Assembly: GCF_028748065.1 (NCBI RefSeq)
Contig: NZ_CP118166.1
Span: 1,069,501-1,133,500 of the forward strand
From: Hyphococcus flavus
GTDB lineage: Bacteria > Pseudomonadota > Alphaproteobacteria > Caulobacterales > Parvularculaceae
Length of the DNA stretch: 64,000 bases
Direction: 5' to 3'
Part shown: positions 33,552 to 47,720 of the stretch, in pieces
Numbering within the stretch: position 1 is the stretch's first letter
How the letters are laid out: the number at the start of each line of letters is the position of its first letter
Translations under genes and position numbers: made by a program
Notes under the pieces: model-generated
What the model was told of the DNA's origin: nothing
The model's input: only the letters and a program-made list of their open reading frames with translations
The model's database searches: none

Positions 33552-34355
33552 TTAACGCTCATTCCTAACTTGCCATTCAACAATAATATCATTCTCGTGT
33601 AGTTCTAAGAGTTTAACGAGAAGACAAAAATTTACGTCGTTTGGTTTCACTATTGAAATCATTCCTTTTCGCATTCTTGAAAAATGACTAGGAAATCTAA
33701 ACACCATCGGCTCTGTAATATCACTAAAATTTTCAACATCTGATGCTACTCTGACTGCGTCTTGCGCAGCAATAAGATCAACGCACCCATGAGCAGGCTG
33801 CAAGCTAGAAAATTTAATCTCTATGCTTCGGTTATCAGCATGACTGAATTGTACCTTTAATTTGGTGCCGCTATGTACTACTGGTATGCGCCTTTTTCCG
33901 CTTCCTATAACTAACTCGACTTGCCCATATCTGAAAGTTTGCTCCTCAATCGCCGCCCTTAGCTTACTATTGAAAAACGCCACGCTAATTTTATTTTCTA
34001 AAAGTTTTCTATAACCTTGCGAGTAGATTGAACCATTTGGATCCAAGACGCCTATTACTACTTTCGGCAACTTCGATTCGATTATGAGGTCCGAACAAGA
34101 TTGGATTTGATCTTCATGTATTTCGACGCAAGGCTCTAACGTGGTGAATAATGTCGCATTTTTCAATTGTCGACTCTTGAGTTTTTCAATTGCAACTCGC
34201 TCTGCATGAAAACCATCAACTTCTCCTCGATAACCTGTCGACAGAAGAATCCCATGCTCAGCAATAACGGCTCCAACCCTCGGGTGAACTTGGCACTTTG
34301 AAAGTTCGCTCAAGGCTATCTTCATAAAATCACTATCTGAATAAGCCTTAGTCAT
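33552..34355 (-). CDS. RibD-like deaminase domain protein, AT-rich orphan
   Basis: 267 residues. The first 145 form a cytidine-deaminase-fold domain: VHPRVGAVIAEHG, the zinc/proton-shuttle motif HAE (His50, Glu52), then TLEPC (Cys76) with the third ligand probably Cys87, and VVIGVLDPNGSIYSQGYRKL, which closely follows the RibD deaminase pattern. The C11 spacing between the cysteines is longer than in RibD. The rest (150-267) is an unknown beta-rich domain; the RibD reductase half is absent. Base composition is far more AT-rich than the neighbours, suggesting transfer. Nucleotide or base deamination is likely; a defence role is possible but unproven. Confidence 0.75.
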   Translation of the reverse strand: MTKAYSDSDFMKIALSELSKCQVHPRVGAVIAEHGILLSTGYRGEVDGFHAERVAIEKLKSRQLKNATLFTTLEPCVEIHEDQIQSCSDLIIESKLPKVVIGVLDPNGSIYSQGYRKLLENKISVAFFNSKLRAAIEEQTFRYGQVELVIGSGKRRIPVVHSGTKLKVQFSHADNRSIEIKFSSLQPAHGCVDLIAAQDAVRVASDVENFSDITEPMVFRFPSHFSRMRKGMISIVKPNDVNFCLLVKLLELHENDIIVEWQVRNER

Positions 34356-43537: not shown

Positions 43538-44212
43538 GTGCGAAACGTCAAAGACACATTAGAACGAGAAGGACGCGTCTGGTTTCGTAATTCACTGAGC
43601 GATAGCGCACTTAAGAATCTAGACAGAAATTTTTCATCAAAACCCGATGCAGGTCACCGGCATGAATGGGCCCCAGTCTTTGATGGTTTTTTCGGCGCAG
43701 GCAGTGAGGTAGCGGAACTCGTTCAAAGCATCGTCCCACACGCAAAACCAGTCCGCCTCGTGTCCTTCAACAAAGTGACGGATAATAATTGGTCCCTTCC
43801 GTGGCATCAGGACCGCGTCATCGCGGTGCGGGACCGTCATGACGTCGACAACTTTTCCAACTGGTCCCAGAAAGAAGGGACATGGCATTGCGAACCGCCT
43901 ATTTCATTTCTGGAAAATATGGTTTTTGTTCGCATCCATCTGGATGACGCAACACAAGGCAATGGAAGTTTGGAACTCGCATTAGGGTCCCACAAGTCCG
44001 GTTATATAGCGGCAGATAAAGCCGCAGCAACTGCCGACTGCTATCCAGTAGAGTTATGCCGCGCCACCCGCGGTGATGTATTGATCATAAAAATGTTGAC
44101 GCTTCACCGTTCCCGCGCATCAACCACAGCCGCCAATCGACGCGCCATCCGCATAGACTATTCACCTGATAGCCTGCCCCAGCCATTAACGTGGGCCACA
44201 AGCCATTCCTGA
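43538..44212 (+). CDS. Phytanoyl-CoA dioxygenase (PhyH) family protein
   Basis: 224 residues of the PhyH non-heme iron dioxygenase family. The iron motif PWHQD (His90 and Asp92) and a later TLHRSRA (His190) with RRAIRIDY (2-oxoglutarate Arg) complete the facial triad. It uses Fe(II) and 2-oxoglutarate to hydroxylate a small molecule; the substrate is unknown. The start is GTG at 43538, seven bases after the DUF2721 stop; no strong ribosome site is visible. The base composition is slightly more AT-rich than hemW. Confidence 0.85.
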   Translation: MRNVKDTLEREGRVWFRNSLSDSALKNLDRNFSSKPDAGHRHEWAPVFDGFFGAGSEVAELVQSIVPHAKPVRLVSFNKVTDNNWSLPWHQDRVIAVRDRHDVDNFSNWSQKEGTWHCEPPISFLENMVFVRIHLDDATQGNGSLELALGSHKSGYIAADKAAATADCYPVELCRATRGDVLIIKMLTLHRSRASTTAANRRAIRIDYSPDSLPQPLTWATSHS

Positions 44213-44253
44213 GAAAGTTTGCACCTTTCACAACTACCGGCCAAAATGATGTG

Positions 44254-45015
44254 ATGACGCCAGAACAACGCGAACGTTACGCCCGCCACATCCTCCTGCG
44301 CGAGGTGGGCGGACAGGGCCAGCAAAAGCTGATGGACGCGCGCGTGCTTGTGATTGGCGCGGGCGGGCTCGGCAGTCCGATCCTGCAATATCTCGCGGGC
44401 GCCGGCGTCGGTACGTTGGGCATCTCCGACAGCGACGATGTTTCGTTGTCAAACCTGCAACGACAGGTGATGTTCCGCACCGAGGATGTGGGCGCCGACA
44501 AAACCAAAAGCGCGGCGGCGTATATCGAACGGTTGAACCCGAACATCACCGTCAAAACGCACCCGCGCATCAGCGATGAAAACGCCTCGGCGATCATCGC
44601 CGATTACGACCTCGTGGTTGAAGGCGTCGATAATTTCGCCGCGCGTTATGTTTTGAACCGCGCCTGCCTCACCGCGAAAAAGCCCCTCGTTTCCGCTGCC
44701 GTCGGAAGGTTCGAAGGCCAGCTTTCAACCTTCAAGCCTTATGATAACCCCGGCGTCCTGCCGTGTTATCGCTGCCTCGTGCCTGAGGAGCCGCCGCGCG
44801 ACCAACAGGTGAACTGCGCAGAGGAAGGCGTTCTCGGCGCTGTCACTGGCGTTCTCGGCACGCTCGCCGCTATGGAGGTGTTGAAAGAACTTCTCAGTGT
44901 CGGCGACAGCATGGCCGGACGACTGCTCGTTTACGATGGCCTTGCCGGCACGTTCCGCACCATCCGCCTGCCGGCGGACCCGGCATGTAGTGATTGTGGT
45001 CGTGTGGCTGATTAG
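44254..45015 (+). CDS. moeB: E1-like adenylyltransferase MoeB/ThiF/HesA
   Basis: 253 residues from MTPEQRERYARHILLREVGG. Nucleotide-binding GAGGLGSPILQYLAGAG, catalytic Arg and Asp segments VSLSNLQRQVMF and VVEGVDNFAARYVLNRAC, and the zinc pair CYRC ... CSDC are all present; CAEEGVLGAVTGVLGTLAAMEVLK follows. It adenylates the C-terminus of MoaD or a similar sulfur carrier in molybdopterin synthesis. No rhodanese tail. It overlaps nothing but lies 41 bp after the PhyH gene. Confidence 0.92.
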   Translation: MTPEQRERYARHILLREVGGQGQQKLMDARVLVIGAGGLGSPILQYLAGAGVGTLGISDSDDVSLSNLQRQVMFRTEDVGADKTKSAAAYIERLNPNITVKTHPRISDENASAIIADYDLVVEGVDNFAARYVLNRACLTAKKPLVSAAVGRFEGQLSTFKPYDNPGVLPCYRCLVPEEPPRDQQVNCAEEGVLGAVTGVLGTLAAMEVLKELLSVGDSMAGRLLVYDGLAGTFRTIRLPADPACSDCGRVAD

Positions 45016-45191
45016 ATCCCGCAGATAATAACGATAGCGCCACCACATTAACTGCGGGTACCTATAGCTTACCTTTCTGTCCGCCCCCCCGAATTAGAAA
45101 CAGCATGTGTATAACTCGTCGGCGGAGCTCTGTACCTCAAAAGATAGAAATGTATGTTGATGCAACGATAAGCATTACCGGAAAATTCTCA

Positions 45192-46796
45192 ATGAAGATC
45201 AAAACTCTACAACTTAAAAATGGATACAAACGGTTTCACGATTTAACCATTGACCTCGGCGACAATCCCGCACGCATTGTTGCGCTTCTGGGCCCAAACG
45301 GTAGCGGCAAAAGTAGTGTCTTTGATGGAATGCTATTCCTGCAGAACAACCACAACCAAATCGGCGGAGAAGGTCATCGGCCTAATAAGTATCACTCAAT
45401 GCACGGTGAGACCAATTTTCAATCCAGCAATGTTTCTATTGAGTTTGACCAAGGCCAATACAATGAAGTTTACGCAGCAAAAAACAAAAGCGGGCAAGCA
45501 GGTACTATCTTCTCATTCAGGAGCTCTTATAGATATAATAGCCAACTCAACGTCACCCAAATCAAGTCGATAGAGGACATAAGCACAAATAATTATGGCG
45601 CTGGATCGGCCAGCGCTATCGACCAGAAAATGGACGTAAATTACCGAAGGCTGTTCGCATATTACAATAACTATCTTGAAGAAAAAGACTGCAGGCCTAG
45701 CGAAGCTAAAAAAGCTATTGTCAGTGAATTGAATGATTCACTAGAAAAATGTCTCGATATAAAAATCGATAACCTTGGAAATATCGAAGACAATAAAGGA
45801 TCTCTTTTTTTTACAAAATATGATCAAGCTACACCATATGAATTCGATGTATTATCGTCTGGAGAAAAAGAGGTCGTTGATATACTCTTAGACTTATTTT
45901 TAAGAAAGGAGCGATACTCCGACACAATCTACATTATTGACGAGCCAGAACTACACATAAACACATCAATTCAAAAGTTGTTGCTGTTGGAAATAGAAAA
46001 GCTTATTGGCGACCAGTGTCAAATATGGGTGGCCACACACAGCGTTGGCCTCATGAGAGCGCTGCAGTCAGACCTTAAAGATAAGTGCCAGATCATCTAT
46101 TTCGAACCAGGAAGAAATTACGGCACTGAAAGCATAACGCTATATCCAATCGAAAAAAATTACAGAACTTGGCGTGAGATTTTTCGCACTGCGTTAGATG
46201 ATCTCACAGAACTAGTTAGTCCGAAAAGAATTATCTATTGTGAAGGACGTGATAAGCCAGGCTCAAGTGGGATTGAACGTGGATTTGATGCAAAAATTTA
46301 TAATGAAATTTTTGGAAAAGCACACCCAGATACACTGTTCGTCTCTAGCGGAGGAAACACTGAACTAGATCAAAGAAGTAACATAGCAATGATGGTTCTA
46401 TCAAAGGCTTTGCCTACGTTAGAAATACTCGTGCTTAAGGATCGAGATATTATGCCGGACCGAGCAACTACAATAACCGACCGAACAACATATCTCGAGA
46501 ACAATCCGCAAAACCATCGCATGTTGAAACGAAAAGAGATCGAGAATTACCTTTTTGACAAATCTGTAATCGTAAGCTTTTGCGCGGCTAGGGGCTTGTC
46601 ATTTGATGAGGCTAGTTTCGATAAATTAGTTTCTGATATTAGTGATGAAGATGTGAAATCTCTAGCAAGCGAGATTAAAAACTGTTGTGGATTAGCCTCT
46701 AATTATGGAACCCAGCAATTTAAGTCGGAGCTTGCACAACATATCACGCCAGAAACACCCACATATACGGAGTTGCATTCGGTAATTTTCAACTAA
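45192..46796 (+). CDS. SMC-like ATPase fused to TOPRIM/DUF4435-like nuclease; probable defence protein
   Basis: 534 residues, AT-rich compared with all neighbours. Residues 1-300 are an ABC/SMC-type ATPase: the canonical N-terminus TLQLKNGYKRF, Walker A GPNGSGKSS (34-42), signature LSSGEK (221-226), Walker B IIDEPELH (Asp250, Glu251) and the switch VATHS (His283). Residues 345-460 look TOPRIM-like: IIYCEGRD (Glu351), LKDRD (Asp417, Asp419) and RKEIENYLF (Glu449, Glu451), a pattern of DUF4435. This is the domain content of the PARIS anti-phage system (AriA ATPase plus AriB DUF4435 nuclease) in a single chain; OLD-family nucleases are an alternative. Start at MKIKTLQL; upstream in-frame ATGs at 45150 and 45105 are less likely. 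Confidence 0.8.
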   Translation: MKIKTLQLKNGYKRFHDLTIDLGDNPARIVALLGPNGSGKSSVFDGMLFLQNNHNQIGGEGHRPNKYHSMHGETNFQSSNVSIEFDQGQYNEVYAAKNKSGQAGTIFSFRSSYRYNSQLNVTQIKSIEDISTNNYGAGSASAIDQKMDVNYRRLFAYYNNYLEEKDCRPSEAKKAIVSELNDSLEKCLDIKIDNLGNIEDNKGSLFFTKYDQATPYEFDVLSSGEKEVVDILLDLFLRKERYSDTIYIIDEPELHINTSIQKLLLLEIEKLIGDQCQIWVATHSVGLMRALQSDLKDKCQIIYFEPGRNYGTESITLYPIEKNYRTWREIFRTALDDLTELVSPKRIIYCEGRDKPGSSGIERGFDAKIYNEIFGKAHPDTLFVSSGGNTELDQRSNIAMMVLSKALPTLEILVLKDRDIMPDRATTITDRTTYLENNPQNHRMLKRKEIENYLFDKSVIVSFCAARGLSFDEASFDKLVSDISDEDVKSLASEIKNCCGLASNYGTQQFKSELAQHITPETPTYTELHSVIFN

Positions 46797-46834
46797 CTTC
46801 ACTCTCTTAAAACTGAACAATTCGGCTTTTCCGC

Positions 46835-47143
46835 CTAGTTTCTTTTCTTCTTGTCTATCAATACTGCCTGCTGCCATTTGCTGGGTTTCTTGTCAGTGCG
46901 GTGAATGCAGCCCGCCCAGCAGCAAGGGCGTTTTTGACCGTCGAGAAGCTCTTCTACAGCGCGTGTGATCCGTCTTACGCGGGTCTTCTCCTGTTTTGCG
47001 TCTTCAACCCAGCAAATGAATTCGTTCCGCCCGATCGGCGTCAGGCTTTCCCAGAGCGTTGTTACCTCTTTTGTCTCGGTCAACGCCTTGACGAAATCAG
47101 CGGGAAGATCGTGCACCAGGCCGCCTGAGAGTTTCTTTGCCAT
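46835..47143 (-). CDS. OmdA/YdeI-type small protein
   Basis: 102 residues. The body ALTETKEVTTLWESLTPIGRNEFICWVEDAKQEKTRVRRITRAVEELLDGQKRP matches the YdeI/OmpD-associated (OmdA) helical domain: a W-x-x-L-x-P-x-x-R start, I-x-W-V-x-x-A-K and the K-T-R-x-R-R-I repeat. The function is not firmly known; E. coli relatives have been tied to envelope stress. The C-terminus has CCWAGCIHR, three cysteines that could bind metal. It converges on the defence-like gene, 38 bp between stops. Confidence 0.85.
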   Translation of the reverse strand: MAKKLSGGLVHDLPADFVKALTETKEVTTLWESLTPIGRNEFICWVEDAKQEKTRVRRITRAVEELLDGQKRPCCWAGCIHRTDKKPSKWQQAVLIDKKKRN

Positions 47144-47249
47144 ATGCTCCGCTTACCAAATTTGCGTCGCCCGTCACAAGTCCGCATGAGACAGAGCGCA
47201 ACCATCACGCGGGCGCGCACGAGCCTGACAAATTCAACAGATCTGGAAC

Positions 47250-47720
47250 TTAGTCTTCGAGGGTGATGACAACGACGCTGCCGGGCGCGACGGCGACTTT
47301 CGTTTCGTCAAAGCGGGGCTTTCGCAGTTTCGGACGGAAGCCGTTGGAAAACGCCACCGGCTCCTTCGGGCGGCCGAGAAAACCGCCGCGATTAAGCACG
47401 CCGTCGCCGTTTTCATCCAAGTAAGCCGCGAAGGAATATTCGCCTGGCTCGAGACCGAGCAAAGAAACGACCGCGACGCCTTCCTCGTTCAACTCGCCCT
47501 GATGCTTCAGGCGTGCAAGTTCAAGGAAAGAATCTTCGCTATCGTAAACGGTAATGCGGACGGGCTGACCGGGCTTGGCTTTGAATTCTGTCTTCACCGC
47601 GGCGACGACAGAATTCGGATCGGCGTATTTTGCAAAAGCATCCGTCATAACGCCAGCGGAATCGGCGTGCGCAGCGCTTGCCGCCGCCAGAAGAACCCCA
47701 ATCCCCAACAATTTACGCAC
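47250..47720 (-). CDS. DUF2141-family exported protein
   Basis: 156 residues. Signal peptide (GIGVLLAAASAAHADSA) and the DUF2141 beta-rich domain: VRITVYDSEDSFLE, LEPGEYSFAAYLDENGDGVLNRGGFLGRPKEPVAFSNG. The D-x-N-x-D-G segment could bind calcium. The family is exported and of unknown function. A near-match to the CtrA box (TTTA-N7-TTAAC, 47801) lies about 80 bp upstream on the divergent side, so its promoter may be cell-cycle controlled; weak inference. Confidence 0.88.
   Translation of the reverse strand: MRKLLGIGVLLAAASAAHADSAGVMTDAFAKYADPNSVVAAVKTEFKAKPGQPVRITVYDSEDSFLELARLKHQGELNEEGVAVVSLLGLEPGEYSFAAYLDENGDGVLNRGGFLGRPKEPVAFSNGFRPKLRKPRFDETKVAVAPGSVVVITLED

What the first reader, a model, noticed from the sequence alone, without database searches (positions are those of the whole stretch)
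45192..46796. Single-gene PARIS-like ATPase-TOPRIM defence candidate
Seen: an AT-rich 534-residue gene amid GC-rich housekeeping genes. Its first half is an SMC/ABC ATPase (Walker A 34-42, signature 221-226, Asp250-Glu251, His283) and its second half has TOPRIM-like acidic motifs (Glu351, Asp417-x-Asp419, Glu449 in RKEIENYLF). Known: PARIS defence uses an AriA ATPase and an AriB DUF4435 nuclease, usually two genes, and OLD nucleases join ATPase and TOPRIM. Inference: a fused one-chain PARIS relative or a new OLD-type branch, acquired horizontally between moeB and an OmdA-like gene.
Basis: partly seen in the sequence, partly recalled or inferred. Interest (0 to 1): 0.75.

Follow-up and report, generated by a model that had tools for sequence, protein, structure and literature searches.

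The report
Divergent one-chain PARIS-like phage-defence gene
A single foreign-looking gene has been dropped between two ordinary chromosomal genes; it joins an ATP-driven sensor to a TOPRIM nuclease and most likely stops phage-infected cells from growing, as a distant one-piece relative of the known PARIS defence system.

Summary
In detail: 45192-46796 (+) encodes 534 residues, an SMC/ABC ATPase plus a C-terminal TOPRIM domain, at GC 0.40 among ORFs averaging 0.56. E351, D417 and D419 are invariant in nine aligned sequences; the fourth acid is E451, not E449. It is a single-gene insertion: two congeners carry 52 and 75 bases where the window has about 1.85 kb, and 1 of 62 family genomes, its own, encodes it. 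Eight of the 12 intact relatives used come from viral contigs, several beside Mu-like, tail or integrase genes. Sequence profiles place the TOPRIM half with PARIS AriB/DUF4435 (hhalign 89-99%) rather than OLD (15%); its predicted fold modestly resembles OLD TOPRIM structures, and AriB is not among the 50 hits listed. Trees group 13 proteins apart from both known fused AriAB types, with moderate support. Best reading: a divergent branch of one-chain PARIS-like abortive defence. AriAB fusions were published in 2022 (PMC9122126), so the fusion is not new; the branch and its tethered effector are mildly novel. No function was tested.

The parts
45192..46796 (+). One-chain ATPase-TOPRIM gene, 534 aa (P0001)
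   Evidence: relatives start at the same methionine
45192..46091 (+). ABC/SMC-type ATPase half, about residues 1-300
   Evidence: AAA_21 residues 29-288 E 6.9e-20; AAA_15 E 5.5e-16
45291..45317 (+). Walker A GPNGSGKSS, residues 34-42
   Evidence: 7 of its 9 positions invariant in 9 of 9 sequences
45852..45869 (+). ABC signature LSSGEK, residues 221-226
   Evidence: L221, S222, G224, E225, K226 invariant in 9 of 9
45939..45944 (+). Walker B Asp250-Glu251
   Evidence: invariant in 9 of 9
46038..46040 (+). His283, switch histidine (role recalled)
   Evidence: invariant in 9 of 9
46143..46796 (+). C-terminal half, residues 318-534: TOPRIM domain plus helical tail
   Evidence: fold model pLDDT 84.6; PDB match 6nk8 E 1.7e-4; PADLOC AriAB E 1.9e-6 for residues 325-534 alone
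46242..46244 (+). TOPRIM Glu351 (YCEG motif)
   Evidence: invariant in 9 of 9
46440..46448 (+). TOPRIM Asp417-x-Asp419
   Evidence: both Asp invariant in 9 of 9
46542..46544 (+). Glu451 of IENYL, the conserved third acidic motif (reader named Glu449)
   Evidence: E451 invariant in 9 of 9, position 449 variable
44988..46838 (.). Stretch missing in a congener: 1851 bases here, 52 bases in L007
   Evidence: L010 has 75 bases against 1836 (44983-46818)
44191..45015 (+). Upstream neighbour, MoeB/ThiF family
   Evidence: the 19 congener loci compared were fetched by it
46835..47143 (-). Downstream neighbour, OmdA (YdeI-like)
   Evidence: PF13376 E 1.2e-17; adjacent to moeB in L007 and L010 without the gene
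47250..47720 (-). DUF2141 gene, far flank of the variable site
   Evidence: PF09912 E 2.1e-17; found in 15 of 19 congener loci

Best explanation
A horizontally acquired, single-gene, PARIS-like anti-phage protein. Shown here: an ABC-type ATPase and a TOPRIM-like domain in one chain, conserved catalytic-type acids, a sporadic and mobile distribution, and an empty insertion site in two congeners. Inferred: the ATPase half oligomerises and senses a phage product (in PARIS, anti-restriction proteins such as Ocr); ATP-coupled rearrangement frees or pairs the tethered TOPRIM domains; these then cut nucleic acid with two metal ions, most likely host tRNA as AriB does, halting growth of the infected cell before phage release. 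Because effector and sensor are covalently joined, activation must act in place, by pairing of TOPRIM domains, not by release of a free effector subunit as in two-gene PARIS, unless the chain is cut.
For: PADLOC best hit is the fused AriAB model PDLC02981, 112.2 bits, E 6.9e-33, then AriA 76 and 75 bits, PtuA 72 bits; residues 325-534 alone list only AriAB (E 1.9e-6) and AriB (E 0.023). Profile-profile TOPRIM comparison: two fused PARIS groups 96.0 and 96.4%, AriB-type group 89.0%, pooled PARIS 98.7%, OLD 15.3%, reversed controls 0.1-0.6%. A relative (L005) scores DUF4435 at E 8.1e-5, 22.4 bits, below the 27-bit cut-off. Acids invariant. Mobile contexts: Mu-like phage genes, tape measure, integrases, R-M genes. 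Empty site; 1 of 62 family genomes. The genome has a strong N6_Mtase gene, E 1.1e-111 (its HsdM-like role is recalled), that such a system could back up. AriB chemistry and PARIS action: PMC12409363, PMC9122126.
Against: No Pfam DUF4435 match for this protein. A close PDLC02981 member (L034) scores 668 bits, this one 112. The PARIS groups are themselves loosely joined: hhalign gives 94.1% between the two fused groups, 59.3% and 3.5% between each and the AriB-type group, and 79.5% between pooled PARIS and OLD. PDB sequence search with the family profile puts Rad50 (E 5e-8) and retron ATPases before AriA (E 0.0055). Foldseek: the full model finds Septu/retron PtuA first, the TOPRIM half finds OLD first, closely followed by unrelated alpha/beta folds (lipase, E 4.6e-3); AriA or AriB is in neither list of 50 shown (of 862 and 1412 matches). 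Clade support is moderate (91/92 and 84/95). No trigger, substrate or phenotype was tested. The viral collection is biased toward phage contexts. 13 of 14 control genomes also have an N6_Mtase.
Confidence: 0.55

Rival explanations
1. An OLD-type (class 1) single-gene nuclease: the TOPRIM half cuts invading or phage-altered DNA, gated by the ATPase, and does not target tRNA.
For: Same single-gene ATPase-TOPRIM layout; best PDB fold matches of the TOPRIM half are OLD C-terminal regions 6nk8 and 6njw; retron-Eco8 chains appear among the full-model matches (Eco8's effector is an OLD protein, PMC10568477); a phmmer hit to an OLD protein (6p74) at E 0.015 stands before AriA at E 0.037; pooled PARIS and OLD TOPRIM profiles are themselves related (79.5%).
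Against: hhalign of our TOPRIM group against 10 OLD-type proteins gives 15% against 89-99% for PARIS groups; 8 of 10 OLD rows split off in the TOPRIM tree; PF20469 (OLD-like TOPRIM) has no match in the own genome at E 0.001.
Confidence: 0.25
2. Defence ATPase-TOPRIM protein with a different target or trigger from PARIS, for instance a superinfection-exclusion cargo gene of Mu-like prophages that was stranded in the chromosome.
For: Relatives sit in Mu-like and integrase-bearing contigs; their clade is separate from both fused AriAB types.
Against: Closest profiles are still AriAB. This overlaps with the main reading and differs mostly in trigger and target.
Confidence: 0.15
3. A non-defence housekeeping or repair ATPase.
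For: Pfam, PDB sequence and fold searches also find Rad50/SMC-type ATPases.
Against: Absent from 61 of 62 family genomes, low GC, single-gene insertion, relatives on viral contigs and a plasmid.
Confidence: 0.05

Closest known systems
Fused PARIS AriAB, PADLOC PDLC02981 type (about 694 aa; e.g. L034)
   Same: One chain, ABC ATPase followed by TOPRIM; best profile hit; TOPRIM profile match 96.0%
   Different: 160 residues shorter; 112 bits against 668 for L034; separate clade; Cys before the catalytic-type Glu (CEG) in 13 of 13 members, V/L/F in 20 of the 21 compared PARIS and OLD-type proteins, L070 being the exception
Fused PARIS AriAB, PADLOC PDLC02982 type (about 536-559 aa; e.g. L053, L056, L033)
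   Same: Similar length and order of domains; TOPRIM profile match 96.4%
   Different: L053, L054 and L056 pass the DUF4435 cut-off, ours does not; separate clade
Two-gene PARIS AriA + AriB (e.g. L057)
   Same: ABC ATPase sensor plus DUF4435-type TOPRIM effector; AriB-type group TOPRIM match 89.0%
   Different: Two proteins, so AriB can be released; here it is tethered
OLD nucleases, class 1
   Same: Single gene, ATPase plus TOPRIM; TOPRIM fold match 6nk8
   Different: Sequence profile 15.3%; no PF20469 match in the own genome; the 10 OLD-type proteins used are all longer, 585-798 aa
Septu/retron PtuA ATPase
   Same: ATPase half: best Foldseek matches
   Different: PtuA works with a separate HNH protein PtuB (HNH named in PMC12409363; the pairing shows in the PDB titles); here no partner gene is seen and no Rfam match

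Membership tests
PARIS (AriAB) | AAA_15 or AAA_21 ATPase above Pfam cut-off | tested here: met
   72.7 bits against 27 (AAA_21) and 59.6 against 32.1 (AAA_15)
PARIS (AriAB) | DUF4435 (PF14491) above Pfam cut-off | tested here: not met
   no match for the protein or its C-terminal half; 1 of the 4 members of A1 at E 0.014; L005 E 8.1e-5, below cut-off. The AriB-like gene of L057 also stays below it, 25.9 bits
PARIS (AriAB) | Fusion profile score; the 2022 rule was 80 bits for AAA_15+DUF4435 (PMC9122126) | tested here: inconclusive
   112.2 bits to PDLC02981, but that this model is the published AAA_15 fusion profile is my inference
PARIS (AriAB) | TOPRIM domain homologous to AriB | tested here: met
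   by sequence profile: hhalign 89.0-98.7%, reversed controls 0.1-0.6%; not confirmed by fold search
PARIS (AriAB) | Triggered by anti-restriction proteins; abortive infection | not testable with these tools
   needs phage assays
[quoted passage not shown]
   catalytic-type acids present, substrate unknown
PARIS (AriAB) | ATPase hexamer holding the effector inactive | not testable with these tools
   only monomer models were made
OLD class 1 | Single gene with ATPase and TOPRIM | tested here: met
OLD class 1 | OLD-like TOPRIM sequence (PF20469 or OLD profile) | tested here: not met
   no PF20469 match in G000 at E 0.001; hhalign 15.3%
Retron or Septu ATPase systems | Partner gene (RT, msr/msd RNA or HNH protein) next door | tested here: not met
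   no Rfam match up to E 1 in 44900-47300; no candidate ORF within the inserted stretch, whose neighbours are moeB and OmdA

The most novel reading that the evidence does not exclude
A third, phage-borne clade of one-chain PARIS in which the TOPRIM tRNase is never released: infection triggers pairing of tethered TOPRIM domains inside the ATPase assembly, so these proteins bridge PARIS and OLD nucleases and could show how separable effectors evolved.
Probability: 0.3. Interest if true: 0.5.

Novelty: new variant of a known kind. Interest (0 to 1): 0.36.

Why it matters
Two-gene PARIS works by releasing its effector (PMC12409363); whether single-gene AriAB works differently from class 1 OLD is stated as unclear in PMC10568477. 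A compact 534-residue one-chain form with relatives at 52-55% identity in viral contigs is a tractable protein for that question, and it shows that DUF4435-based detection sits at the edge of this branch.

Tried and rejected
Rejected: vertical inheritance; a retron or Septu system; the upstream ATG at 45105 as start (relatives start at 45192); E449 as the conserved acid. Led nowhere: phage record searches (no match); PDB sequence search with the TOPRIM profile (two hits up to E 5, at 0.05 and 0.94, both judged chance); DNA search of the insert in plasmids (none); repeats at the insertion (one 17-base pair at 82% identity, 44951 and 47023, spans it but lies inside moeB and OmdA and is judged chance; no target duplication recognised); promoter/terminator scan (2 against 3.6 and 3 against 2.7 in shuffles). 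The single genome-contig scan returned one 35-residue match, L001, not used. The paper search listed one paper with the label PARIS_II_merge (PMC12874462), seen in the listing only.

Rows dropped: L005/L039 (two in-frame stops) was left out of all alignments and trees; L001, L036, L037, L049-L052 (short matches) were left out; plasmid hit H4 was not used; of 12 OLD loci (L062-L073) 10 were used, L071 and L072 dropped as short. L038 is in the hhalign group and the trees only. L060 and L061 were grouped with L034 on 39-40% identity, not scanned with PADLOC; L054, L035 and L055 were not scanned either; L058 in the AriB-type group is a DUF4435-type ORF below the cut-off whose neighbour I did not examine.

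Full report
What is there. Window 45192-46796 (+) encodes a 534-residue protein. Its GC is 0.401 and GC3 0.393, while the other 54 ORFs of at least 150 aa in a greedy, nearly non-overlapping set average GC 0.557 (sd 0.037); one other ORF is lower. Residues 29-288 match AAA_21 (E 6.9e-20) and residues 68-285 AAA_15 (E 5.5e-16). For the C-terminal half Pfam lists only an LRR model at E 0.11.

Relatives. tblastn found one plasmid record, Zymomonas mobilis pZMOB01, 30.6% identity over 95% of the query, and no phage record. With the protein, 4 of 385 genomes of the class matched at E 1e-10, own included; with alignment A1, 3 of 398 of the phylum at E 1e-30, own included. Three viral-contig scans gave eight full-length relatives of about 530 aa: L040 and L041 at 55 and 52% identity and six at 28-31%. 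In the nine-sequence alignment A4 seven Walker A positions, the signature, D250-E251, H283, E351, D417, D419 and E451 are invariant; position 449 varies. The glutamate of the first TOPRIM motif is preceded by Cys (CEG) in 13 of 13 intact members.

Mobility. In L007 (G387) the moeB and OmdA alignments are separated by 52 bases where the window has 1851; in L010 (G407) by 75 against 1836. In 19 congener moeB loci (each 2 to 3.7 kb) none shows the gene. Fifteen of the 19 also hold DUF2141, with 7 to 751 bases between the two hits: 2 with OmdA (452 and 475), 5 with 7 to 184 bases, and 8 with 661-751 bases, in 5 of which an ORF of 210-228 aa is readable. By protein search at E 1e-10, 1 of 62 genomes of the family has it, own only, which includes 1 of 28 of the genus; 42 of the 62 are at least 90% complete and at most 5% contaminated. 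Among the eight viral-contig relatives, Pfam shows Mu-like phage genes near L041's (morphogenesis gene next door, portal and gp27 further on) and L042's (S24 repressor next door, Mu transposase 4 kb on), a tape-measure gene next to L043's, an integrase 5 kb from L045's, a weak integrase match next to L046's (E 1e-4, below cut-off), and an Eco57I-type methylase 4 kb from L040's; L044 has a DUF4357/GIY-YIG-like and an AlbA_2 gene nearby, and the 4-kb L030 was not examined. That collection is of viral contigs, so phage genes are expected; what the contexts add is that the gene is cargo in unrelated places. It is lower in GC than most listed neighbours in L040-L043 and L046; L044 and L045 are mixed.

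Family. PADLOC ranks the fused AriAB model PDLC02981 first (112.2 bits, E 6.9e-33) before AriA (76 and 75 bits) and PtuA (72 bits); all 4 members of A1 match it, and it is the first hit of L040, L044 and L045 (112, 98 and 82 bits). Residues 325-534 alone list AriAB at E 1.9e-6 and AriB at E 0.023 and nothing else (HMMER's filters drop most matches above 0.1). Known-type fused proteins score 668 (L034) on PDLC02981 or 176-365 on PDLC02982 (L053, L056, L033). TOPRIM profile-profile comparison of our 13: fused PARIS 96.0 (3 sequences) and 96.4% (5), AriB-type 89.0% (3), pooled PARIS 98.7%, OLD 15.3% (10), reversed controls 0.1-0.6%. Controls that weaken this: the PARIS groups reach 94.1, 59.3 and 3.5% among themselves, and pooled PARIS reaches 79.5% with OLD. 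The groups are small and anchored by hand at the E-G motif, so these are comparisons, not database E-values. TOPRIM tree, 34 rows: the 13 members form one clade (91/92); 8 of 10 OLD rows split off (93/80); one OLD-type row (L073) sits in an unresolved fork with the PARIS types and ours, another (L070) just outside it. Full-length tree, 22 rows: clade 84/95, its order relative to the PARIS types unresolved (61/35).

Structure. Full-length model: pLDDT 75.6, pTM 0.60; Foldseek against PDB gives Septu/retron PtuA ATPases first, TM to query at most 0.42 among the 50 listed of 862, retron-Eco8 from rank 26 on, so it mainly reads the ATPase. Against viral predicted structures the hits listed are ATPases. 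The C-terminal model (pLDDT 84.6, pTM 0.79) matches OLD TOPRIM domains, 6nk8 at E 1.7e-4 and 6njw at 3.4e-3, TM 0.43 and 0.38; lipases follow at 4.6e-3, so the fold match is modest. AriA and AriB chains are in neither list of 50. By sequence, the family profile finds Rad50 at E 5e-8 and AriA at E 0.0055 in the PDB. Thus TOPRIM is supported by fold and motif, and the PARIS affinity rests on sequence profiles.

Known background. Single-gene ariAB fusions were reported with the discovery of PARIS, found as two genes or one in 5.2% of genomes (PMC9122126, passages read). A review states that it is unclear whether single-gene AriAB differs from class 1 OLD (PMC10568477, passages). AriB is a two-metal TOPRIM tRNase; the E26A mutant gives no cleavage fragments; AriA hexamers hold three AriB copies until phage proteins release them (PMC12409363, abstract and two sections; commentary PMC11455837, whole text). 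The two Nature structure papers are not held. The listings showed no paper on this branch; that is a statement about those searches and that library only.

Mechanism. Shown: domains, conserved catalytic-type residues, mobility. Inferred by homology: sensing by the ATPase, activation of TOPRIM, nucleic-acid cleavage, growth arrest. That E351 is the equivalent of AriB E26 is inferred from its place as first TOPRIM glutamate. In a fused chain the effector cannot diffuse away, so activation in place follows unless the chain is cut. The genome also has an N6_Mtase gene (E 1.1e-111), compatible with PARIS as a back-up to restriction, but 13 of 14 control genomes have one as well.

Verdict. Real, horizontally acquired, probably anti-phage; works like PARIS in the best reading, while membership is not fully met because DUF4435 is not reached. 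A divergent variant of a known kind.

Noticed in passing
window 33552-34355 (-): Another low-GC gene (GC 0.40, GC3 0.34), 267 aa, with a cytidine/deoxycytidylate deaminase domain (PF00383 E 2.1e-15), between an RF-1-domain gene and an rlmN-like radical SAM gene; possible second foreign gene.
   Followed up: partly
window 45015-47250 and L007-L025: The moeB-DUF2141 gap varies across the genus: of 15 loci with both, 5 have 7-184 bases, 2 have OmdA, 8 have 661-751 bases, some with another gene of 210-228 aa; a small insertion spot.
   Followed up: partly
L040:9608-10627 (+): A trypsin-like protease gene overlaps the end of the closest relative's gene by 4 bases and is equally low in GC (0.37); a possible partner, not recognised among the neighbours scanned at other loci.
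   Followed up: no
L042, L030, L046 TOPRIM motif: The D-R-D motif reads D-L-D in these three relatives, a natural variation next to the catalytic-type acids.
   Followed up: no
L005 (G158): This relative carries two in-frame TAA stops, and its genome holds a second, intact DUF4435 fusion, L053.
   Followed up: no
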